From positions 62,001 to 126,000 of the forward strand of contig NZ_SJTF01000015.1 of NCBI RefSeq assembly GCF_004634245.1: DNA of 64,000 nucleotides, read 5' to 3'. This stretch comes from Flavobacterium foetidum. GTDB lineage: Bacteria > Bacteroidota > Bacteroidia > Flavobacteriales > Flavobacteriaceae. Under the pieces are notes generated by a model. It searched no databases. It was not told where the DNA came from and saw only the letters and a list, made by a program, of their open reading frames with translations. The position numbers and the translations under genes were made by a program. Shown piece by piece: positions 24,326 through 34,150 of the stretch (position 1 is the stretch's first letter; the number at the start of each line of letters is the position of its first letter).

Positions 24326-24616
24326 GATGGATTTAAAAACAGAAGATTGTGAGGGCAGATTTAGCTTTTTACATTAAAATCATTGGTACATCCTCAAGAT
24401 TTAATTAAGCTAGCGTAAACGCTTTTGTCTAAAATCGGAGCAACGATTATTAATTTGATATTTTATTCGTAAACAGAGTTATGAAATGTTAAATTATTTA
24501 ATTTTTTGTTTTGTAAAGCTCAATAAAGGCTGATATTTCTTTCTTTTTTTTTATAATATTTTAAAGAAAAATATTATAAATGCGGAAAGCCGTAAAGATT
24601 TAAAAGAGATAATGTT

Positions 24617-24624
24617 TAAGTTTG
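24617..24624 (+). promoter_or_regulatory. Possible -7 box upstream of the lanthipeptide precursor
   Basis: TAAGTTTG matches TAnnTTTG, about 310 bp before the precursor gene. No TTG at the right distance upstream is seen, so support is weak. Confidence 0.25.
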
Positions 24625-24868
24625 TTCTTACATTTTTTCTAAATAATAAAATCTAGAATTTATTTTTTATATGGATTTTGAAAAAAATCACAACTGCGAT
24701 AGTCCCATTTAGGATACAATTTACAATAGTAAAGACTTGCAGCAATTTGAGTACATATAATCAAATAAAATTATAATTATGAAAAAAGGAAAGAGATTTG
24801 CACCAACTTAAGATTTTTTGACAATTGTGCAAACACCAGTAAAAGAAGCTGATTTATCACTGAGGTCC

Positions 24869-24906
24869 AAGCACTCCCTCTAGAATTATCAGGAAATGCT
24901 TTTTTT
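24869..24906 (+). terminator. Possible hairpin with T-tract ahead of the precursor gene
   Basis: AAGCA ... TGCTT arms around a partly paired middle, followed by T7, 31 bp before the precursor ATG. A ten-codon frame (MKKGKRFAPT, stop) begins at 24779 upstream. Together these could be an attenuated leader, but the stem is weak. Confidence 0.3.
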
Positions 24907-24936
24907 ACATTAATTATTTTTTAACACTATATAATT

Positions 24937-25116
24937 ATGAAAAAAATTAAGCAAAATAAAAAAACTTTAAAACTTGATAAAAAGTTGATTACAAATTTAA
25001 GCGCGGATCAAATGGAAATGATTAAGGGTGGTAAACAGCAGGATCAGCCACAGATAACTGTCACGGTTGATTTAACTGATACGGGAGGCAGCCTTTTATG
25101 CACAGTTAGTATGTAG
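24937..25116 (+). CDS. Class I lanthipeptide-type precursor peptide
   Basis: 59 residues, too short for usual gene finders. The leader (1-32) is LKLDKKLITNLSADQMEMIKGG-like, with the hydrophobic/acidic LSADQMEMIKGG ending typical of Bacteroidota double-glycine RiPP leaders. The 27-residue core KQQDQPQITVTVDLTDTGG... continues SLLCTVSM: seven Ser/Thr and a single Cys (Cys55), so at most one lanthionine ring, for example Ser52-Leu-Leu-Cys55 or Thr49-Cys55. The genes for a LanJ-like reductase and split LanB dehydratase follow, which fixes the interpretation. Double-Gly cleavage is inferred; no dedicated protease is nearby. Confidence 0.8.
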   Translation: MKKIKQNKKTLKLDKKLITNLSADQMEMIKGGKQQDQPQITVTVDLTDTGGSLLCTVSM

Positions 25117-25206
25117 ACAGAGTAAATCTGCTTATGTGATTTTTTTAGGAACTCAGCGATTTATTCAAAGAGTTCCTTAATTAAAGAAATATTTTAAAAA
25201 AAATTT

Positions 25207-26343
25207 ATGAAAAGTGTCTCTCTTATAGGAAACAATATTGACGGCCCTTCAAGTATCAAATTTTCAGGTAATTTTAAACTTGAGAGTGAAAACATTAATG
25301 TAGGTCTGGTTGAAGAAGAGGATCTTTCTTTAGCGGAATCTTCTGATCCAGATAATAGGGTTCTAATTAAGAAAAGAGGAATTTCATGTAATTATAGAGA
25401 TAAATCATTAATACTTAAGTATAACGAGCAGATTAACACACTCAGAGAAAAAGGAGAGACTGCTTTTTCATATATCGGCTCTGAATTTGTAGGGGAGGTT
25501 ATAGCTGTTGGTAAAAATGTTAAAACGCTTAAGATTGGAGATCGCGTTGTAGCAAATGCAGCATATCCATCTTATACCAAGGGGTATATTGGCGGGCTGC
25601 CAACGAACCATGCATCAAGAAAAATTGATGACTTTAGCGAAAATAAGCTTATTAAAATTCCTGATGCCTTAACAGATGATATTGCTTCGGCTTTTGTGAT
25701 AGCGGCGTTCACCACGTACTCTATGATTCGAAAAGTAGTTATCCCAAATATAAAAGTTTTAGTTACAGCGGCTAAATCAAATACATCTTTGGCTATCATT
25801 AATGCTTTAAGAAATTTTCCTGTAGAAGTATATGCGATGACATCAAATTTTAGGAATAATGAAATACTTTATGATTATGGCGTAAAAAGAGTTTTTGTAG
25901 TAGATCATGATGCTGATAGTTATCTTGAGGGTGATGAAATTTCTGACTTTGTCAGTAAGAATGGACTTTTTGATGCAGTTATTGATCCTTTGTTCGATAT
26001 TCACCTTGGCAGAGTTATGAAATTAATTAATTATGACGGCAAGTATGTCACTTGTGGTTTTTATAATCAGTTTCCAGAATTTTTGGATAGTAATTTTTTT
26101 ACGAGGGATTCTTTAGAGGATATAATGAAATTAGCTATGGTTAGAAATATCTCTATTATTGGGAACTGTTTAGGAATCAAAGAAGATTTTGACTTAGCTC
26201 TCGAACATTTCCTTGCAGGTAAATTTTCAATCCTAATTGACAAAGTTTTTTTTGAAGGCGAAGAAAAGGAGTTTTTTGATTTGAGTTATAATTTTAATGA
26301 TAGATTGGGCAAAGTTGTCTATTTATATGATAAAAGACCGTAA
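25207..26343 (+). CDS. LanJ-like MDR (zinc-type alcohol dehydrogenase fold) reductase
   Basis: 378 residues with the medium-chain dehydrogenase layout: an N-terminal GroES-like domain (RVLIKKRGISCNYRDKSLI, GSEFVGEVIAVGKNVKTLKI-GDRVVANA), then a nucleotide-binding domain (VLVTAAKSNTSLAIINALRN). The usual GHE of zinc enzymes reads GSE and no standard GxGxxG is present, so zinc use is uncertain. In lanthipeptide clusters, LtnJ-type enzymes of this superfamily reduce dehydroalanine to D-Ala. Its place between the precursor and LanB supports that role. The exact family cannot be confirmed by eye. Confidence 0.7.
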   Translation: MKSVSLIGNNIDGPSSIKFSGNFKLESENINVGLVEEEDLSLAESSDPDNRVLIKKRGISCNYRDKSLILKYNEQINTLREKGETAFSYIGSEFVGEVIAVGKNVKTLKIGDRVVANAAYPSYTKGYIGGLPTNHASRKIDDFSENKLIKIPDALTDDIASAFVIAAFTTYSMIRKVVIPNIKVLVTAAKSNTSLAIINALRNFPVEVYAMTSNFRNNEILYDYGVKRVFVVDHDADSYLEGDEISDFVSKNGLFDAVIDPLFDIHLGRVMKLINYDGKYVTCGFYNQFPEFLDSNFFTRDSLEDIMKLAMVRNISIIGNCLGIKEDFDLALEHFLAGKFSILIDKVFFEGEEKEFFDLSYNFNDRLGKVVYLYDKRP

Positions 26344-26395
26344 GATTTTATCTTGAAACCAGTAATAAAAAAAAAATATTTTCTATCTCAAACTC

Positions 26396-28609
26396 ATGAA
26401 AAAGAATAAGTATCATTTACTTGATAAATTTGTTTTGAGGACACCTCTTCTAAGGTATAATTCAGTTTTTTTTGCAGCATTAAAAGAAGAAGATTTAGTG
26501 TCGCTTCTTGAGGATGAAATAATTAAGGAATCGATTTATTTTGCTTCCAGTGATCTGTTAAATGAAGCAAATAAACAAATTGAATTGAACCGAAAACTAA
26601 GTAAAGAAAGCCTGTTTGCTATTTTAAAATATTTTTCACGCATGAGTACAAGATGTACTCCATTTGGACTATTTGCTGGAACATCTGTTGGAAATTTTGG
26701 GAGTGAAGAAAGTACCCCAAAGCTTGGAAAACTTAAAAATTATAAAAAGCATGTCCAATTGGATATGAATGTAATTTTTTCCATTTTCCAGCTAATCAAT
26801 CAGAATAAAAAGATCAGAAAATATTTTACCTATTATACAAATACCACTATTAATTCAGGCGCATATCAAGATGGATTAACTTATATAGAATATATATACA
26901 GAAAGGGCAGGAGAAACCATATGCTGAATTCGGTAACAAATAGTTTTTTTCTGGATCTAATTTTTACAAAAAATGAGGGAGGTTTGAAATTTAATGAATT
27001 GGTGAAGTTGCTTGTATCGCAAGATATAGAAAAGAAGGAAGCTTGCAAATACATTAATGATCTTATTGATTCACAACTCCTAGTGAGTGAATTGGAGCCT
27101 TATACAACTGGAAACGAACCGCTCAAATTTATATTGGAGAAGATCAATGGCATCATCGAATTAAAAGATCTGTATCAAAGTTTAAGCGAAATAAACAGCA
27201 TATTAGAGGATTTAAACAGTACATTTTCAGATAAATTTTGTAATGTTAAACATTATCTAAGAGTACAAGAGATTTTGAACGGCCTGCATATAGCATTTGA
27301 TAAAAAAAATCTATTTCAAGCTAACCTTAATACAATTTTAGAGCAAAGAGCGCTGTGTTCTAAAGCTCAGAAGGAAGTTTTTAAAGGAATAGAAGTATTG
27401 AACAGATTAACAGTAAAACAGTCAAATGCAAACTTACAAACTTTCAAAAAGGAATTCTATGACCGGTATCAGGATCAAGAAGTGGTCTTGTCTGAAGTTT
27501 TGGACATAGATAAAGGTATTGGCTACTGTAATACTTCGACAAAGACTGATTCTCCTCTGCTGGAAGGTCTTTATTTTCCTGTGATATCCCAGAAAAGGCC
27601 GGTTAAATCACAATACGTGCATGATTTTTTTTTGAATAAATTATCTGAGGCGTCTTATTGTAATTATAAAGTAATTAATTTATCGGATAAGGACTTGGAG
27701 AATTTCGAATTGAACTGGGAAGATCTTCCGCCAACCATGTCTTCTTTAGTAGAGATTTATGCAAAAGATGATTCTCAAAACATATATGCTATCACAAATT
27801 GCGGAGGAAGTTCCGCAGCCAATTTATTGGCCCGATTTTGCAACTCAAATAATGAAATATCAAATTTTGTATCAGATGAGATTATTAAAGCTGAAAACAA
27901 ATTAATTGATGGAAATTTTATACTTGCGGAAATTAGCCATTTACCCGAATCTCGAGTTGGCAATATTTTACTGCGGCCGCAATTAAGAAAATACGAAATC
28001 CCATATCTGGCCAAATCAAATCTGCCGGTTGAAAACCAGATATTTATAAAAGATATTTGGGTTTCCCTTAGAAACGATACTATTTATTTATATTCAAAAA
28101 AACTAAAGAAGTATATTATTCCAATATTGACATCTGCACATAATTATAATAATCCTTCTATGGTTTCAGCTTACCGATTTTTATGTGATATTCAAAATCA
28201 AAGCGGAAGAACTTCCATGGGGTTTTCTTGGGGGCCAGTTTCTGAAAATTTTATTTTTCTGCCGCGTGTGCAGTATAAAAATATTATTATATCGAAAGCA
28301 TTTTGGAACTTCAAAAAATGCCATATAGCGCATCTTTATAATTTGGAGAATGAAACGTTGATATCTGAAATTCATAAATGGAGAGCCAGGTACCATATTA
28401 ATGAAGAAGTAATCATCAAAGAGTTGGATAATAAATTGTACATAAATTTTAATAATATATTATATATTGAATTGTTTCTTAAGGTATTAAAAAACAGAGA
28501 TAGTTTTATAATCGAAGAGTTTTTATATAATGAATTCAAGTCTATAGTTAAATCAGATACAGGCATGCATACCAATGAATTTATATTCTCACTTTTTAAA
28601 ATCGACTAA
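26396..28609 (+). CDS. Lantibiotic dehydratase, glutamylation domain (split LanB N-part)
   Basis: 737 residues. The start (DKFVLRTPLLRYNSVFF) and the block FSRMSTRCTPFGLFAGTSVG are hallmarks of the Lant_dehydr_N domain, which uses glutamyl-tRNA to activate Ser/Thr of the precursor. Full LanB enzymes are about 1000 residues; this one stops before the elimination domain. The missing part is the next gene, sharing one base (TAATG). The same split is known in pinensin-type and thiopeptide-type clusters. A weakly conserved middle section and a C-terminal LRPQLRKYEIPYL block are also present. Confidence 0.9.
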   Translation: MKKNKYHLLDKFVLRTPLLRYNSVFFAALKEEDLVSLLEDEIIKESIYFASSDLLNEANKQIELNRKLSKESLFAILKYFSRMSTRCTPFGLFAGTSVGNFGSEESTPKLGKLKNYKKHVQLDMNVIFSIFQLINQNKKIRKYFTYYTNTTINSGAYQDGLTYIEYIYRKGRRNHMLNSVTNSFFLDLIFTKNEGGLKFNELVKLLVSQDIEKKEACKYINDLIDSQLLVSELEPYTTGNEPLKFILEKINGIIELKDLYQSLSEINSILEDLNSTFSDKFCNVKHYLRVQEILNGLHIAFDKKNLFQANLNTILEQRALCSKAQKEVFKGIEVLNRLTVKQSNANLQTFKKEFYDRYQDQEVVLSEVLDIDKGIGYCNTSTKTDSPLLEGLYFPVISQKRPVKSQYVHDFFLNKLSEASYCNYKVINLSDKDLENFELNWEDLPPTMSSLVEIYAKDDSQNIYAITNCGGSSAANLLARFCNSNNEISNFVSDEIIKAENKLIDGNFILAEISHLPESRVGNILLRPQLRKYEIPYLAKSNLPVENQIFIKDIWVSLRNDTIYLYSKKLKKYIIPILTSAHNYNNPSMVSAYRFLCDIQNQSGRTSMGFSWGPVSENFIFLPRVQYKNIIISKAFWNFKKCHIAHLYNLENETLISEIHKWRARYHINEEVIIKELDNKLYINFNNILYIELFLKVLKNRDSFIIEEFLYNEFKSIVKSDTGMHTNEFIFSLFKID

Positions 28610-29475
28610 TGGAAATTCAGAGAAAGTTTTTTTTAGGGGACCAATGGATTTATTATAAAATTTATCTGGGTGAATTTACGTCTGATTTTATTCTAGTAGA
28701 TTTAATTAAAGGGTTGGCTGAGAAACTGCTGGAATCTGGAATTGTTGATAAGTTTTTTTTTATTCGTTATAATGAGAACGGATACCATTTAAGAGTGAGA
28801 TTTCATCTGACCGACAAAGAAAAAATTATTCATTTGATCATGCTTTTTAACGATACTTTTAAAGAAAGTATGGAAAAAAACTTCGTTTCAAAGATTCAGG
28901 TTGATACATATGATCGCGAACTTGAACGTTATTTTGATGAATGCATTATTTTTTCAGAAAACATATTTTACCGTGACAGCATTGCTATTTTAGATTTTCT
29001 AGCTCTTATGCAAAAGCAGAATTTTGAAGAGAATTACAGGTGGCTTTATGGAATCTATATGATTGATTGTTTAATAAAAGATTTTGGATTCAACATTAAT
29101 GAAAAGCTTAAAATCGTTGAGTCACTTAATGAATCATTCAGTAGAGAGTTTCATTTAGATAAGAGGCTAAAAGATCAGTTAGATGCTAGATTCCGAGCGG
29201 AAAGAGAAAAAATTGAAAGAATATTACGTGGTGAAAATAAAGATTTTCAATCTCACATGAGATTGAAATCACTTCATATTTCGCCGGATATTTTGAATTT
29301 AAAATTAAGACTTGGCAGGGATGAATTAATTAAAATCCTTGTCAGTTATATTCATATGTCCTGCAACAGATTATTTAGGAGCAGTCAGCGAAAACACGAA
29401 TTTGTTTTATATCATTTTTTATGGAAACATTACAGATCTGAAGTTGGAAGAACAAAGCATCAAATCAATCTCTGA
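28609..29475 (+). CDS. Thiopeptide-type/SpaB C-terminal domain protein (LanB elimination part)
   Basis: 288 residues. The start QWIYYKIYLGE and the block FFFIRYNENGYHLRVRFHL match the Lant_dehydr_C (SpaB C-terminal) elimination domain, which removes glutamate to leave Dha/Dhb. The C-terminal SYIHMSCNRLF and EFVLYHFLWKHYRS are also typical. It overlaps the LanB N-part by one base, so the two are made in equal amounts. No LanC cyclase, transporter or peptidase gene follows; an alpha/beta hydrolase comes next after 178 bp. Confidence 0.88.
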   Translation: MEIQRKFFLGDQWIYYKIYLGEFTSDFILVDLIKGLAEKLLESGIVDKFFFIRYNENGYHLRVRFHLTDKEKIIHLIMLFNDTFKESMEKNFVSKIQVDTYDRELERYFDECIIFSENIFYRDSIAILDFLALMQKQNFEENYRWLYGIYMIDCLIKDFGFNINEKLKIVESLNESFSREFHLDKRLKDQLDARFRAEREKIERILRGENKDFQSHMRLKSLHISPDILNLKLRLGRDELIKILVSYIHMSCNRLFRSSQRKHEFVLYHFLWKHYRSEVGRTKHQINL

Positions 29476-29653
29476 AATCAAAATGAAAGCCGTCTTAGAT
29501 TTTATAAAAGATAGAATTGTATGATTTAATGATTATTAAAAGGACGTGGGAAAAATCTTTATATTACGCTGACATAATTTAATTTTTAATTTAAGAAAAA
29601 TACTATATTTGATTTTTACAACTAATACAAGAATTTTATAACCCAAATCGTAA

Positions 29654-31045
29654 ATGAAAAAAAAAATATTAATGCTGCTGAGCTTTATAACTTTTGCAGC
29701 CAGTGCTCAGCAGATCAACGGAAGCTGGGCAGGAACCCTTAAAGTGCAGTCTGCTTCACTGAGGCTGGTATTTCATATCTCAAAGACAGAAACAGGATAT
29801 ACTGCAGTTATGGACAGCCCCGACCAGGGAGCTTACGGGCTGCCTGCTGGAAATGTTACATTTACTAATCCCTCGCTTTTAATTGAAGCCCCTGCGATGG
29901 GAATTAGCTACAAGGGAGAACTTAAAAATGATCATATCACAGGAGAGTTCAAGCAGGGAGGTCAGAAATTTAACGTAGATCTGTACCGTACTCAGGCGCA
30001 GAAGCCTGAGGAAAGAAAAAGACCGCAGGAGCCTTCAGAGCCCTATCCTTATTATACGGAAGAAGTTGTTTTTAAAAATGTAAAAGAAGGCATCGAGCTG
30101 TCGGGTACGCTCTCTCTTCCAAAAAAAGAAGGTATGTTTCCTGTTGCAATTCTTATAAGCGGAAGCGGGCCTCAGAACAGAGATGAAGAACTTATGGGAC
30201 ACAAACCTTTTCTGGTGCTTTCTGACTATCTGGTTAGAAGAGGGATAGGCGTACTTCGTTATGATGACCGCGGAACTGCTAAATCAGGCGGAGTATTCAA
30301 AACAGCGGTTACTGCTGATTTTGCACAAGATGCCTTGTCAGCAGTTGAGTATCTGAAAACCAGAAAAGAAGTCAATAAAAACAAGATAGGGCTTATAGGA
30401 CACAGCGAAGGAGGTCTTATTGCGCCGATAGTGGCAAACAAATCAAAAAAAACAGCATTTATTGTACTAATGGCTGGTCCTGCAATATCTGGAGATCAGC
30501 TCCTTTTGACCCAGCAGGTGTATATAGGGAAGGCTTTAGGAAAAAGTGAGGCGGAGATTCAGAAATCAAAGTCAGAGAATGAAAAGGCTTTTGAGATTGT
30601 AAAAAAATATAGTGATCCTGCAGAATTAAAAGCTAATATGATCCGATACATAACCGAAATTTCCCAAAATGATCCTGCTAAACCTGAAGGAATTTCCCAG
30701 AAGGATTATGTTGAAGGTCAGGTTGCAAGAATTCTGAACCCTTGGATGACCAGTTTTATAAGATATAATCCTGAGCCTGCACTAGAGAAGGTAAACTGCC
30801 CCGTGCTGGCTTTAAACGGAGAAAAGGATCTGCAGGTTGTGCCAAAAGAGAATCTTGCTGCCATCAATAAAGCGCTGAGTAAAGGAGGAAATAAAAATAG
30901 TACTGTTAAGGAGCTGCCAGGTTTAAACCATATGTTTCAGGAATGCTCAACAGGACTGCCGAGCGAATATTCTCAGATTGAACAGACAATTTCTCCTTTA
31001 GCTCTTAGAACAGTCTCTGAATGGATTATTCTGAAAGTTAATTAA
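29654..31045 (+). CDS. Secreted alpha/beta hydrolase
   Basis: 463 residues with a signal peptide (MLLSFITFAASAQ). An N-terminal beta-rich domain (about 20-115: INGSWAGTLKVQSASLRLVF) precedes an alpha/beta hydrolase domain. That domain has the oxyanion region ILISGSGPQNRDEELMGHKP, the nucleophile elbow GHSEGG (Ser251) and a likely catalytic His in PGLNHMFQE. Length and layout match Bacteroidota serine aminopeptidase/esterase-like proteins. TATATTTG at 29604-29611 may be its -7 box, so it probably has its own promoter. A link to the flanking antibiotic genes is unproven. Confidence 0.85.
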   Translation: MKKKILMLLSFITFAASAQQINGSWAGTLKVQSASLRLVFHISKTETGYTAVMDSPDQGAYGLPAGNVTFTNPSLLIEAPAMGISYKGELKNDHITGEFKQGGQKFNVDLYRTQAQKPEERKRPQEPSEPYPYYTEEVVFKNVKEGIELSGTLSLPKKEGMFPVAILISGSGPQNRDEELMGHKPFLVLSDYLVRRGIGVLRYDDRGTAKSGGVFKTAVTADFAQDALSAVEYLKTRKEVNKNKIGLIGHSEGGLIAPIVANKSKKTAFIVLMAGPAISGDQLLLTQQVYIGKALGKSEAEIQKSKSENEKAFEIVKKYSDPAELKANMIRYITEISQNDPAKPEGISQKDYVEGQVARILNPWMTSFIRYNPEPALEKVNCPVLALNGEKDLQVVPKENLAAINKALSKGGNKNSTVKELPGLNHMFQECSTGLPSEYSQIEQTISPLALRTVSEWIILKVN

Positions 31046-31172
31046 GAAAAATACTAATTAAATTGTTTTTTTTATAAGTTTTTATTTATTTTTTTATTTT
31101 TTTTATTTGAATATTATTATATATTCGCAGGATAATTCCTATTACAAATAATAACCTAAAAACATTATTAAA

Positions 31173-31856
31173 ATGAAAAAAATCAGAAAATTTTCCAGCA
31201 GTCCGCTGGCTATTATCCTAGTGGCACTGAATTTATTATTTGCCAGCTGTTCCAGTGACACGGTTTCATCTGTGAACGACCAGACATCAGCCAAGCTCAG
31301 CGGTGAAGAGCTTTTTAAGTCCTTAATATTTGCTGACGGAGAATTATCAGAGGCTGTTCCGGCACTGAAAAGTGCATTTGACATGAATGATCTTACTGCA
31401 GAGCAGAAAGCAAATTACAAGAAAGCGGAGCAGGAAGCTATTGCCTACCTTAAAGGAAAAGATGCCGCATATTTTGAAAAATTCCAGAAGGAGATTTATT
31501 CAAAGGATCCTGAAATTATTCTTGCAAGCATAAAAAAGGTCGCTGGGGATATAAAACCGCTTATTGATAGTAAATTAGCTGTTTATAACCTGTCAGTTGA
31601 AAAAATCAGTAAAGAGTATTACCAGAAAAATGCAAAAAATGCCCCATTATCTGCAAAGGTACAGGTAGAGGCTTGCGGTGTATGGGCTCTGGCTATAGGT
31701 GTAGTAGTGGTTGCAGTGGCTGTTTTCTATGTAGCGGCAATCTCTGAGGTTACTTTTGGACTTTCGGAGCCACTGCCTCCAATTACAGAGGAAACTATTG
31801 CCTTGCAGGTAGCTGAAGGAATTGATGGACTTGAGAGACCTATCGGACTGGAATGA
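31173..31856 (+). CDS. SdpC-like antimicrobial peptide precursor (lipoprotein-type signal)
   Basis: 227 residues. The N-terminus is a lipoprotein-like signal (NLLFASC, Cys26). The region KLSGEELFKSLIFADGELSE fits the conserved block of sporulation-delaying-protein (SdpC) family toxins. Near the C-terminus, Cys168 starts a long hydrophobic stretch (CGVWALAIGVVVVAVAVFYV, 168-187), the likely mature toxin, followed by an acidic tail. B. subtilis SDP has a disulfide, but only one Cys is present here. The stop overlaps the sdpA start (ATGA). Confidence 0.75.
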   Translation: MKKIRKFSSSPLAIILVALNLLFASCSSDTVSSVNDQTSAKLSGEELFKSLIFADGELSEAVPALKSAFDMNDLTAEQKANYKKAEQEAIAYLKGKDAAYFEKFQKEIYSKDPEIILASIKKVAGDIKPLIDSKLAVYNLSVEKISKEYYQKNAKNAPLSAKVQVEACGVWALAIGVVVVAVAVFYVAAISEVTFGLSEPLPPITEETIALQVAEGIDGLERPIGLE

Positions 31857-32383
31857 AAAGAAGCTTTTTAAAAATAGCCTATTTCTATTTTCTGGCGGCA
31901 GTATGCTTCTGCATAATCTTATATCTTACGGTTTTGAGTGTAAAGCCCAATCCGATAACACTGCGTTACGATCTGCCGTTTAAAAATACGTTAAATGCCC
32001 TTGCCCCTCAAGGCTGGGCATTTTTCACCAAAGACGTTAAAAAGGATTATTTTAATCTTTATTCACAGAACAGAGAGGAGTTTCAGCTAAAAGCTTCTGG
32101 TACTGAACAGTTATTTGGGTTTAAGCGTGACAACAGAATCATCAATCATAAAATTGGAAGTGTACTCAATAATGTGAATGCCAAATACTGGTATTCTTTC
32201 AAGGGCGACCCCCGCAAAGTGCCTCAGGACTCCCTTACCAAACTCTCTATAAAGATAAGTCCTCCCATGGTTTACGGAGTGTTTTTAGTTGAGAAAGGCA
32301 AGCCTCTTCCATATGAGTGGCACATTTCAAAGTTGAATGTCCGCCAGACCATGGATTATGTATTGCTTGAAATAAAAAAATAA
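31853..32383 (+). CDS. sdpA: SdpA family protein, antimicrobial peptide maturation
   Basis: 176 residues. One N-terminal membrane helix (YFYFLAAVCFCIILYLTVL) is followed by the SdpA block LAPQGWAFFTKDVKKDYFNLY, then a soluble domain ending near YEWHISKLNVRQ. In B. subtilis, SdpA and the membrane protein SdpB are both needed to turn SdpC into active toxin. Its start overlaps the SdpC-like gene stop by 4 bp, and sdpB follows after 4 bp. Confidence 0.85.
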   Translation: MKRSFLKIAYFYFLAAVCFCIILYLTVLSVKPNPITLRYDLPFKNTLNALAPQGWAFFTKDVKKDYFNLYSQNREEFQLKASGTEQLFGFKRDNRIINHKIGSVLNNVNAKYWYSFKGDPRKVPQDSLTKLSIKISPPMVYGVFLVEKGKPLPYEWHISKLNVRQTMDYVLLEIKK

Positions 32384-32387
32384 ACGC

Positions 32388-33323
32388 ATGATTTTAAAAC
32401 AACTCAGCGCAGCTGAATCATTTGTAAATAAAAACTGGTGGTCAAACTGGATAGGACTTAGCAGGACCATTATGGCATTATCACTGATGCTGACACTGCT
32501 GTCCAACAGCAGGTATACGCTTTTTTTTACGGGCTATCAGAATGAGACTTTCCATAAGTTCACCCATTATGAATTTAATTTTTTTTCTTTCTTCAGTGAT
32601 TTTCAGACCGGAATTGCCTTCGCCGTAGCGGGTCTCCTGCTGGTGGCTTCGGGAATTTATCCGCGTTTCACATGTGTGCTGCATTGGTTTATTGCCTATA
32701 GCTTCAGCATTACATCAACCTGCATGGATGGAGGGGATCAGGTATCTGCAATATTGACCCTGCTTTTAATACCGATCTGCGTGCTGGATAAAAGGAAATG
32801 GCACTGGTCAGAGGATAGCTCTAAGCATTCTTTTTTTGCCAAAGCAACGGCTGCAGCCGCCTTTTATCTTATGTCTTTTCAGATATTTGTGATCTACTTT
32901 TTCGCTTCGGTTGGAAAATTCAAAATAGAAGAGTGGAAAAATGGAACTGCCCTTTATTATTGGTTTACCCAGCCATTGTTTGGGGTAACTGATTTTTTCA
33001 AGCCTTTTATTGAAGTCCTTCTCAGCAGTCCGGTAATTATAACGCTGCTTAACTGGTCGGTACTCGTCATTGAATTATTGATTGCTTTTAGTATCTTTAC
33101 AATGGATGCCGGAAGAAAGAAAAAGATGGTTTTCATAGGTATTCTTTTTCACTTTTTCATCGCACTTTTTATGGGCATAATCAGCTTTTCATTTGTAATG
33201 TGTTCTGCCTTATTATTATTAATTTCTAATACCGTTAATTATGAGTTCAGAAATATTAATCTCCCTACTCTTGCTTTTGATTTCAGTGGTTTATTATTTC
33301 TTTCAGCCAAAAAAAATAAATAG
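32388..33323 (+). CDS. sdpB: SdpB family multi-pass membrane protein (HTTM type)
   Basis: 311 residues with about seven hydrophobic segments (GLSRTIMALSLMLTLL, LHWFIAYSFSITSTC, AAAFYLMSFQIFVIYFFASV and others). The motifs FASVGKFKIEEWKNGTALYY and the HTTM-like layout related to vitamin K carboxylases are typical of SdpB. It is needed, with SdpA, for toxin maturation in B. subtilis. The 3' end overlaps the SdpI-like gene by 83 bp in another frame. Confidence 0.85.
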   Translation: MILKQLSAAESFVNKNWWSNWIGLSRTIMALSLMLTLLSNSRYTLFFTGYQNETFHKFTHYEFNFFSFFSDFQTGIAFAVAGLLLVASGIYPRFTCVLHWFIAYSFSITSTCMDGGDQVSAILTLLLIPICVLDKRKWHWSEDSSKHSFFAKATAAAAFYLMSFQIFVIYFFASVGKFKIEEWKNGTALYYWFTQPLFGVTDFFKPFIEVLLSSPVIITLLNWSVLVIELLIAFSIFTMDAGRKKKMVFIGILFHFFIALFMGIISFSFVMCSALLLLISNTVNYEFRNINLPTLAFDFSGLLFLSAKKNK

Positions 33324-33564
33324 GTTTTACGGCTATAGAAGCAGTAAATCCATGAAGAATCTTTCCAACTGGCAGTATTCTAACAGACTTGCTGCCATAG
33401 TTTTATTTAGGATGTCATTATTCAATGGCATACTTTTTTTCATCGTTTCACTTGTATATGGAAGCCTTAACAAAAATATCTTCGGGATTTTTTTAATCGC
33501 CCAATTTGTTGTTATGTTTTTTTACATAGAAAAAAAGATTGGAGAGTATGAAAAGAAATTGTAG
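33241..33564 (+). CDS. sdpI: SdpI family immunity protein
   Basis: 107 residues with three membrane helices. The loop FYGYRSSKSMKNLSNWQYSN is the SdpI/YfhL signature. SdpI gives immunity to the Sdp toxin in B. subtilis. The start at 33241 is kept because the first helix (ILISLLLLLISVVYYFF) would be lost with later Mets; this makes an 83-bp overlap with sdpB. A hairpin follows 20 bp after the stop. Confidence 0.85.
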   Translation: MSSEILISLLLLLISVVYYFFQPKKINRFYGYRSSKSMKNLSNWQYSNRLAAIVLFRMSLFNGILFFIVSLVYGSLNKNIFGIFLIAQFVVMFFYIEKKIGEYEKKL

Positions 33565-33584
33565 ATTACTTTGTTAAGAATTGT

Positions 33585-33630
33585 AAACCTTATAAAGCCT
33601 TTTAAGTCGTGTGATTTTTAAGGTTTTTTT
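33585..33630 (+). terminator. Terminator after the sdp operon
   Basis: AAACCTTA / TAAGGTTT arms with a 26-base loop, then a T-tract. It closes the SdpC-A-B-I operon. The rest of the gap to 34037 is AT-rich and non-coding as far as I can see. Confidence 0.65.
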
Positions 33631-33880
33631 GTGGTTTGTTATATCAGTGGATAAATCTATCTATGAATCTATAGCCTTTACAGAACGACAATTATTTAAT
33701 ATCAGATAAGAGAATAGTGGAACAAACCATTTTTTGTTTCAGTGGAACAACAATCATATTGGAAAACGGGAAATTTAAATAATTTGAAATATAAACCATT
33801 TAAGAATGAGAATTCATTTTCTGAAATTGAAAAGTAATTAGAAAAAATAGAAATTATAAGTCATAATTTTTCTTTATTCA

Positions 33881-34067: not shown

Positions 34068-34076
34068 CTGGCTGAG

Positions 34077-34150
34077 TGACCTCGACAGGATTCAAACCTG
34101 TAACCTTCTGAGCCGTAATCAGATGCGCTATTCAGTTGCGCCACGAGGCC
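34077..34150 (-). tRNA. tRNA-Arg (anticodon ACG)
   Basis: 74 nt on the minus strand. The acceptor stem GGCCTCG/CGAGGTC has one G-U pair. The D-arm is GCGC-AACTGAATA-GCGC, the anticodon arm TCTGA-TTACGGC-TCAGA with ACG, and the T-arm ACAGG-TTTGAAT-CCTGT; the discriminator is A. CCA is not encoded. The ACG anticodon (read as ICG) serves CGN codons. A consensus promoter lies upstream and a hairpin terminator downstream. Confidence 0.97.

What the first reader, a model, noticed from the sequence alone, without database searches (positions are those of the whole stretch)
24937..29475. Minimal lanthipeptide-like cluster with split LanB, one Cys and no LanC
A 59-residue precursor with a Bacteroidota double-glycine leader is followed by a LanJ-like reductase, the LanB glutamylation domain and the LanB elimination domain as separate genes. 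The core has seven Ser/Thr but a single Cys, so at most one thioether ring can form. No cyclase, exporter or leader peptidase is nearby. The product could be mostly a dehydrated and then reduced (D-amino-acid) linear peptide rather than a classical lanthipeptide. I cannot rule out that LanC and the exporter are encoded elsewhere.
Basis: partly seen in the sequence, partly recalled or inferred. Interest (0 to 1): 0.82.

Follow-up and report, generated by a model that had tools for sequence, protein, structure and literature searches.

The report
Ringless lanthipeptide-like cluster with D-amino-acid reductase
A Flavobacterium carries a four-gene set that probably turns serines and threonines of a small gene-encoded peptide into mirror-image (D) residues without the ring-forming enzyme of ordinary lantibiotics, and some relatives have serine or threonine at every second position, as if to build gramicidin-like peptides from a gene.

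Summary
LanA (59 aa), an MDR reductase, a LanB glutamylation protein and a LanB elimination protein lie in order at 24937-29475. LanC is absent from the genome by HMM; the only C39-ABC exporter found lies on another contig.

The same four genes occur in two more Flavobacterium genomes (same 7 Ser/Thr and 1 Cys; dN/dS 0.08-0.16 against one of them), in larger clusters of two genomes of another family, and decayed in Apibacter. The reductase is homologous to the gene taken to be ltnJ (D-Ala in lacticin 3147). I found 25 distinct loci pairing this reductase with LanB; no LanC was seen in any of the stretches. Many precursors of the fused-LanB group lack Cys.

Unexpectedly, split-group precursors outside Flavobacterium have Ser/Thr at every second position (runs of 7-10, p 5e-5 to 6e-4), fit for alternating L,D peptides like gramicidin or polytheonamide. 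The window's own core shows this only partly and not significantly.

Best reading: LanB dehydrates, the reductase makes D-Ala/D-Abu, and the product is largely linear. No chemistry was tested. LanC-free LanB loci without the reductase are also common, so absence of LanC alone is not distinctive.

The parts
24937..25116 (+). LanA precursor, 59 aa: leader 1-32 ending GG (LxLxKx5L motif), core KQQDQPQITVTVDLTDTGGSLLCTVSM with 7 Ser/Thr and 1 Cys
   Evidence: ORF; NF038153 class I lanthipeptide leader 25.8 bits over the cut-off of 22; conserved in G445 and F. ginsenosidimutans; dN/dS 0.083 against G445
25207..26343 (+). MDR-superfamily reductase, LanJ_A-like; proposed to reduce Dha/Dhb to D-Ala/D-Abu
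   Evidence: ADH_N; tblastn to the MDR gene behind the LanM genes of plasmid pMRC01, 31.6% identity, E 6e-34; model pLDDT 85.4 with MDR fold; dN/dS 0.095
26396..28609 (+). LanB glutamylation protein (split LanB, N part)
   Evidence: PF04738 E 1.1e-118; aligns with MadB E 1.6e-38 and NisB E 2e-13; R15, Y79, R82, R86 kept, Asp of NisB D299 replaced by Asn
28609..29475 (+). LanB glutamate-elimination protein (split LanB, C part)
   Evidence: PF14028 E 4.6e-63; TIGR03891 E 1.3e-51; aligns with MadB 769-1031 incl. HLRVRF, DRELERY and IHMSCNR stretches

Best explanation
The cluster makes a largely linear, D-amino-acid-containing RiPP. Proposed order: (1) the leader (LKLDKKLITNL...MIKGG) recruits the two LanB proteins; (2) LanB-N glutamylates core Ser/Thr from Glu-tRNA and LanB-C eliminates glutamate, giving Dha/Dhb; (3) the LanJ_A-like MDR reductase hydrogenates them to D-Ala/D-Abu; (4) an unlinked C39-ABC exporter cuts after GG and exports. 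Without LanC the single Cys stays free, forms a disulfide, or closes at most one ring without enzyme. Shown here: gene content, homology, absence of LanC by HMM, conservation, selection. Inferred: every chemical step, the order, stereochemistry and export. In some relatives the Ser/Thr spacing suggests the purpose: an alternating L,D backbone, the kind that folds into a beta-helix in gramicidin and polytheonamide.
For: Homology to the MDR gene of pMRC01, taken to be the LanJ_A gene ltnJ. Of 104 genomes with a LanB match I searched 79 for the reductase; 9 matched at E<=1e-14 and all 9 matches lie next to a LanB (coordinates); 0 of the 9 has LanC within 10 kb. 21 of 26 loci of the wider, pattern-based sweep have LanB (Apibacter only a fragment), none of the 21 with a LanC-profile hit. 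Equivalents of NisB Y80, R83, R87 and the LRTP Arg taken as R14 are kept. Purifying selection on all four genes against G445. Precursors outside Flavobacterium: alternating Ser/Thr runs of 9, 7, 10, 10 (p 3e-4, 5.5e-4, 5e-5, 1e-4). C39-ABC and HlyD sit inside the cluster in G1052 and G1216. Precedent: RodJA, a LanJ_A, reduces both Dha and Dhb (PMC11519912, passages).
Against: No chemistry was tested. LanJ_A enzymes characterised before RodJA reduced only Dha (PMC11519912, passages), and 5 of the window's 7 sites are Thr. The window's own core does not show significant alternation (lag-2 p 0.14; longest run 2, p 0.86). The fused-LanB group shows none (z -0.01). LanB-N has lost the NisB D299 Asp (N or I in 5 of 5 of this clade, against D in 90 of 94 others), though NisB D299A lowers dehydration only slightly (PMC4341554, passages). 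The MDR-LanC exclusion is only nominal (Fisher p 0.025), the rows are related, and some rows were left out.
Confidence: 0.66

Rival explanations
1. A classical, if small, class I lanthipeptide: LanB dehydrates, the one Cys closes one thioether ring spontaneously (for example SLLC) or by an unrecognised cyclase, and the reductase only mops up a spare residue.
For: The single Cys and the Ser three residues before it are conserved in the two other Flavobacterium genomes. G1052 and G1216 precursors also have one Cys. NCBI's model labels the leader 'class I lanthipeptide'.
Against: No LanC match in four of the six genomes of this group, and not on the cluster's contig in the other two. Both Apibacter precursors have no Cys. 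30 of 68 non-redundant precursors of the fused LanB group have no Cys, against 0 of 11 from LanC-bearing loci.
Confidence: 0.2
2. The reductase acts on something other than Dha/Dhb inside the core, such as a 2-oxobutyryl group formed at the N terminus, and the peptide keeps its dehydro residues as reactive electrophiles.
For: The nearest solved folds include alcohol dehydrogenases, which act on carbonyls.
Against: The closest relative with a known role is the MDR gene of pMRC01, taken to be ltnJ. By sequence the two best solved relatives are a quinone oxidoreductase and the CurF ER domain. The core here begins KQQDQ, not Ser/Thr, so an N-terminal keto group is not expected.
Confidence: 0.1
3. 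A decaying remnant of a lanthipeptide cluster that lost its LanC and exporter.
For: No exporter or LanC in the cluster. The Apibacter relative clearly is decayed: LanB-N fragment, no LanB-C found, leader out of frame with its ATG.
Against: All four genes are open and under purifying selection against G445. The five intact LanB-N beside this reductase form one clade, SH-aLRT 100, none with LanC in its locus, and its other-family members have an exporter in place.
Confidence: 0.04

Closest known systems
Lacticin 3147 and rodencin (class II lanthipeptides with LanJ_A)
   Same: Homologous MDR reductase next to a dehydratase (pMRC01 gene 31.6% identity); RodJA gives D-Ala and D-Abu (PMC11519912, passages)
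   Different: There dehydration and ring formation are by LanM; here a split LanB and no cyclase found
Pinensins and other Bacteroidota class I lanthipeptides (Walker et al. 2020, PMC7268733)
   Same: Split LanB in some clusters, GG leader with LxLxKx5L motif (passages)
   Different: That survey started from LanC (passage), so LanC-free clusters were outside it; the window's LanA does not match the pinensin leader model at E<=1
Polytheonamide (proteusin) and gramicidin A
   Same: Alternating L,D backbone is the pattern predicted for the Apibacter, G1052 and G1216 precursors (review PMC8183687, passages)
   Different: Polytheonamide D-residues come from a radical SAM epimerase (recalled) and gramicidin is non-ribosomal; here the D-residues would come from Ser/Thr by dehydration and reduction
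Bicereucin (class II, LanJ_B)
   Same: Precedent for a lantibiotic rich in D-amino acids with few rings (recalled; only the title and mentions in other papers seen)
   Different: LanM plus flavin-type LanJ_B, Bacillus, two components
Fused LanB + C39-ABC + HlyD + MDR clusters of Flavobacterium, Lacinutrix, Aquimarina (found here)
   Same: Same reductase family, no LanC in the loci, class I leader
   Different: Fused ~1040-aa LanB, often long arrays of hydrophobic precursors, exporter in the cluster, no alternation

Membership tests
Class I lanthipeptide | LanB dehydratase | tested here: met
   PF04738 and PF14028 on two proteins
Class I lanthipeptide | LanC cyclase | tested here: not met
   PF05147: 0 in the own genome; none in G445, F. 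ginsenosidimutans, Apibacter
Class I lanthipeptide | Lanthionine or methyllanthionine in the product | not testable with these tools
   needs mass spectrometry; at most one ring is possible (1 Cys)
Class I lanthipeptide | Class I leader | tested here: met
   NF038153 25.8 bits, cut-off 22
LanJ_A dehydroamino-acid reductase | Sequence homology to LtnJ | tested here: met
   31.6% identity over 86% of the query, E 6e-34, to the MDR gene of pMRC01 (that this gene is ltnJ is inferred from its place); shared motifs in a 12-sequence alignment
LanJ_A dehydroamino-acid reductase | NADPH-dependent reduction of Dha (Dhb) | not testable with these tools
   needs an enzyme assay
Pinensin type | Split LanB | tested here: met
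Pinensin type | Pinensin leader and a LanC | tested here: not met
   NF038180 not among the window LanA matches at E<=1; no LanC
Alternating L,D channel peptide (gramicidin or polytheonamide like) | D-convertible residue at every second position | tested here: inconclusive
   Window and G445 cores: run p 0.86, lag-2 p 0.14; Apibacter, G1052, G1216 cores: run p 5e-5 to 5.5e-4
Alternating L,D channel peptide (gramicidin or polytheonamide like) | D configuration and ion conductance | not testable with these tools
   needs chiral analysis and bilayer recording

The most novel reading that the evidence does not exclude
This clade is a gene-encoded route to gramicidin-like peptides: LanB and an ene-reductase convert Ser/Thr placed at every second position into D-Ala/D-Abu, giving an alternating L,D beta-helix (ion channel or membrane peptide) without any epimerase, NRPS or lanthionine ring. 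The Apibacter cores (ITISITVTVTYSWTWSW and LTITLTITITITITI) and the nearly identical cores of G1052 and G1216 (SLSVSVSLSISYSKSKSKT in G1052) are the clearest cases; the window's peptide (ITVTVDLTDTGGS...) is a shortened, degenerate version.
Probability: 0.32. Interest if true: 0.92.

Novelty: new variant of a known kind. Interest (0 to 1): 0.74.

Why it matters
Surveys that start from LanC (such as PMC7268733) cannot see these clusters, and NCBI's leader model calls their precursors 'class I lanthipeptide' although many have no Cys. If LanB plus LanJ without LanC is a real biosynthetic logic, then the Dha/Dhb-to-D-residue step, which I know mainly as an ornament on ringed lantibiotics, is here the main modification, and it is genetically simple (four genes in the window). 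The alternating Ser/Thr precursors make the idea of a ribosomal, epimerase-free gramicidin directly testable.

Tried and rejected
Rejected: 'relic cluster' for the window (purifying selection against G445; no LanC in the loci of the whole clade). 'LanC elsewhere in the genome'. In one search I left out ten rows (partial or strongly diverged matches); four of these (G482:C32, G492:C8 at 882 kb, G580:C23, G543:C309) lie next to LanC by the coordinates, and two (G426, G678) were not searched for LanC, so the LanC-bearing count is somewhat low.

Alternation was also tested in the fused-LanB arrays (68 non-redundant cores, lag-2 z -0.01) and in cores from LanC-bearing loci (11 cores, z -1.17; one of them, L130, shows LanC but no LanB in the stretch): absent. 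Cores were picked by a leader pattern, so odd precursors are missed. A scan of small GG ORFs with a start codon in all fetched loci ranked the Apibacter (first precursor), G1052 and G1216 precursors on top; two other ORFs reached runs of 6 (Prauserella locus L187, apparently not a gene) and 5 (a Mucilaginibacter precursor, L198).

Led nowhere: a solved structure of a LanJ (only distant MDR relatives). Papers on LanC-free LanB/LanJ clusters: searches listed none that I recognised as such, but listings were capped, I opened passages of only some papers, and most subscription papers are not held. Deepflavo, a Flavobacterium lanthipeptide of DeepRiPP, is mentioned in reviews; its paper is not held, so I cannot say whether it belongs here.
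Full report
WHAT IS THERE. On the + strand, in one direction: LanA 24937-25116, MDR reductase 25207-26343, LanB-N 26396-28609, LanB-C 28609-29475. Domain matches: Lant_dehydr_N E 1.1e-118, Lant_dehydr_C E 4.6e-63, ADH_N E 1.2e-8; LanA leader NF038153 'class I lanthipeptide' above cut-off. The leader contains LKLDKKLITNL, the LxLxKx5L motif that Walker et al. describe for Bacteroidetes (PMC7268733, passages). Core: KQQDQPQITVTVDLTDTGGSLLCTVSM, 7 Ser/Thr, 1 Cys. The next gene downstream is an alpha/beta hydrolase.

WHOLE GENOME. The window lies in a 5.1-Mb genome in 28 contigs, rated 100% complete. LanC-like PF05147: none. C39: two matches on contig C23: an ABC exporter with C39, ABC_membrane and ABC_tran domains and a VKOR-C39 protein, beside other GG-leader peptides. 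A second LanB pair lies on C22 with an S8 peptidase and an AraC/TPR regulator, also without LanC.

CONSERVATION. LanB-N matched in 36 of 397 genomes of the family draw and 71 of 398 of the genus draw; at most two candidates per genome were scored, so these are lower bounds. In those draws only G445 has a close copy (85%). Its locus holds the same four genes, precursor 55 of 59 identical, all Ser/Thr and Cys kept. dN/dS between window and G445: LanA 0.083, reductase 0.095, LanB-N 0.155, LanB-C 0.159. G445 has no LanC match. The reductase is rare: it matched at E<=1e-14 in 3 of 395 genomes of the order draw, 3 of 320 of G1052's family and 3 of 199 nearest relatives, the window's genome counted in the first and last.

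THE REDUCTASE MARKS A FAMILY. Searches gave 104 genomes with a LanB match; I searched 79 of them for the window's reductase. 9 matched at E<=1e-14, and by coordinates all 9 matches lie next to a LanB. A pattern-based sweep of genome contigs (84,980 species) with an alignment of nine such reductases gave 26 loci. 21 of these have LanB in the locus (Apibacter only a fragment). The other five are L202 (Listeria portnoyi, two LanM), L186 and L188 (Bombilactobacillus, Apilactobacillus; HopA1-family gene in both), L187 (Prauserella, not identified) and L208 (weak match). My LanC profile, built from 55 LanC proteins, hit only the two LanM of L202 among the 26. Adding the window, G775, G1052 and G1216 gives 25 distinct LanB-reductase loci with no LanC in the stretch seen; several stretches are cut by contig ends. 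Nine of the named genomes behind these loci were searched whole for LanC: five have none (those of L184, L204, L198, L199, L189) and four have LanC somewhere (L207, L201, L203, L200). Among tabulated LanB genes in genomes where the reductase was sought: reductase with LanC 0, reductase without LanC 9, LanC without reductase 32, neither 52; Fisher p 0.025, with related rows and some rows left out.

HOMOLOGY TO A PROVEN ENZYME. tblastn to plasmid pMRC01 hits the MDR gene behind its LanM genes, 31.6% identity, E 6e-34. That pMRC01 is the lacticin 3147 plasmid and this gene ltnJ is recalled and inferred from its place; that the LanJ_A of lacticin 3147 turns Ser into D-Ala is stated in PMC7268733 and PMC11519912 (passages). 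Of four plasmid neighbourhoods viewed, three have lanthipeptide-type genes (pMRC01 LanM; Pseudanabaena LanM; Pediococcus HopA1 family); the fourth, Azospirillum, has no annotation and no LanB or LanC profile hit. In the window protein Ser stands at the GSE motif where zinc ADHs have His (recalled); the 12-sequence alignment has Ser invariant there, the pMRC01 protein included. The AlphaFold model (pLDDT 85.4) has an MDR fold with alcohol dehydrogenase, quinone reductase and PKS enoyl reductase neighbours.

LANB. Of residues important in NisB (R14, Y80, R83, R87; PMC4341554, passages), Y80, R83 and R87 align with Y79, R82 and R86, invariant or nearly so in 99 LanB-N; R15 in LRTP is taken as R14, since the NisB alignment starts behind it. 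The Asp equivalent to NisB D299 is Asn or Ile in all 5 LanB-N of this clade and Asp in 90 of 94 others; in NisB, D299A lowers dehydration only slightly. LanB-C keeps HLRVRF, DRELERY and IHMSCNR, close to the MadB stretches. In an 88-row tree the five split LanB-N with reductase form one group (SH-aLRT 100), apart from the LanC-bearing split group and from the fused LanB with reductase (quick method, some long branches). This suggests that LanB and this reductase were brought together more than once, but the tree does not force it.

PRECURSORS OF RELATIVES. Split group: Apibacter mensalis (L185, same contig as L218 by its length) has two GG precursors without Cys, cores NKSLNESLDKSITISITVTVTYSWTWSW and ANSNNNEFLTITLTITITITITI; its cluster is decayed (LanB-N fragment, no LanB-C found, a CAAX-type protease gene in between, no in-frame ATG). 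G1052 and G1216 (another family of the order) have GIDASQEMESLSVSVSLSISYSKSKSKTLQFSGWWCL and a near copy, with the reductase (57 and 58% identity), a CAAX-type protease gene, LanB-N, LanB-C, C39-ABC and HlyD in one run. Shuffling each core: longest every-second-position Ser/Thr run 9 (p 3e-4), 7 (5.5e-4), 10 (5e-5), 10 (1e-4); for the window and G445 cores 2 (p 0.86), lag-2 pairs 3 (p 0.14). The four positive cores come from two lineages only. A scan of the fetched loci put these precursors on top. The window's ITVTVDLT lines up with Apibacter's ITVTVTYS by eye, so ten residues from that Ile keep Thr at 4 of 5 even positions; that is a description after the fact, not a test.

Fused group: 68 non-redundant cores, Cys count 0 in 30, 1 in 20, 2 in 13, 3 or more in 5; the 11 cores of LanC-bearing loci have 0, 1, 1 and 9 in the same classes. 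The fused set includes one locus (L178) whose LanB has no reductase beside it. Eight of eight scanned precursors of both groups pass the class I leader model, the Apibacter one barely (22.1 against 22 bits).

MECHANISM AND WHAT IS INFERRED. Shown: genes, homologies, LanC absence by HMM, selection, tree, spacing statistics. Inferred: glutamylation, elimination, reduction, D configuration, use of a remote C39 exporter (C39 matches exist in all five relatives tested, and inside the cluster in G1052 and G1216), and a largely linear product. LanJ_A enzymes known before RodJA reduced Dha only; RodJA also reduces Dhb (PMC11519912, passages). The Thr-rich window core and second Apibacter core would need that wider activity; the Ser-rich G1052 core hardly.

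NOVELTY. Known parts, new combination. The paper searches listed in Tried and rejected showed no description of LanC-free LanB plus LanJ clusters, within an open-licence library and capped listings; the DeepRiPP deepflavo paper could not be read. The most novel reading, an epimerase-free ribosomal gramicidin analogue, is not excluded and rests on four precursors.

Noticed in passing
L063:7825-14217 (own genome, G000:C22 about 315.8-322.2 kb): A second split LanB pair with an S8 peptidase and an AraC/TPR regulator, no LanC. This S8 type without LanC recurs in many fetched Flavobacterium loci; its product type is unknown.
   Followed up: partly
L170:12101-19828 and L203:11203-20793: Arrays of about 24 and 30 candidate GG-leader precursors with hydrophobic, often Cys-free cores beside fused LanB, C39-ABC, HlyD and the reductase; some also match a class IIb bacteriocin model.
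   Followed up: partly
window 24423-33632 and 34076-34150: A 9.2-kb block, cluster plus downstream genes, is collinear with G445 and F. ginsenosidimutans at 86.6% and ends near a tRNA-Arg; in G445 the left flank is a relaxase and a YWFCY/TraG coupling gene, so the block may be mobile.
   Followed up: partly
window LanB-N residue 310 (27323-27325): The Asp of NisB D299 is replaced by Asn or Ile in all five LanB-N of this clade; it might change tRNA or substrate use.
   Followed up: partly
L186, L188, L213: LanJ_A-like reductases in bee-associated lactobacilli and on Pediococcus plasmid pMD136 beside HopA1-family genes (and APH-like genes in L186 and L213), a class V-like set (class V parts and the bee habitat recalled).
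   Followed up: partly
L198 and L207 (Mucilaginibacter): Two different fused LanB genes and the reductase beside repeated precursors with a conserved core motif V(V/I)HGSVSGTFSR behind a different kind of GG leader.
   Followed up: no
L206 (Lacinutrix neustonica): LanB in two frames and four reductase-matching fragments in a row, suggesting duplication and decay or sequencing errors.
   Followed up: no
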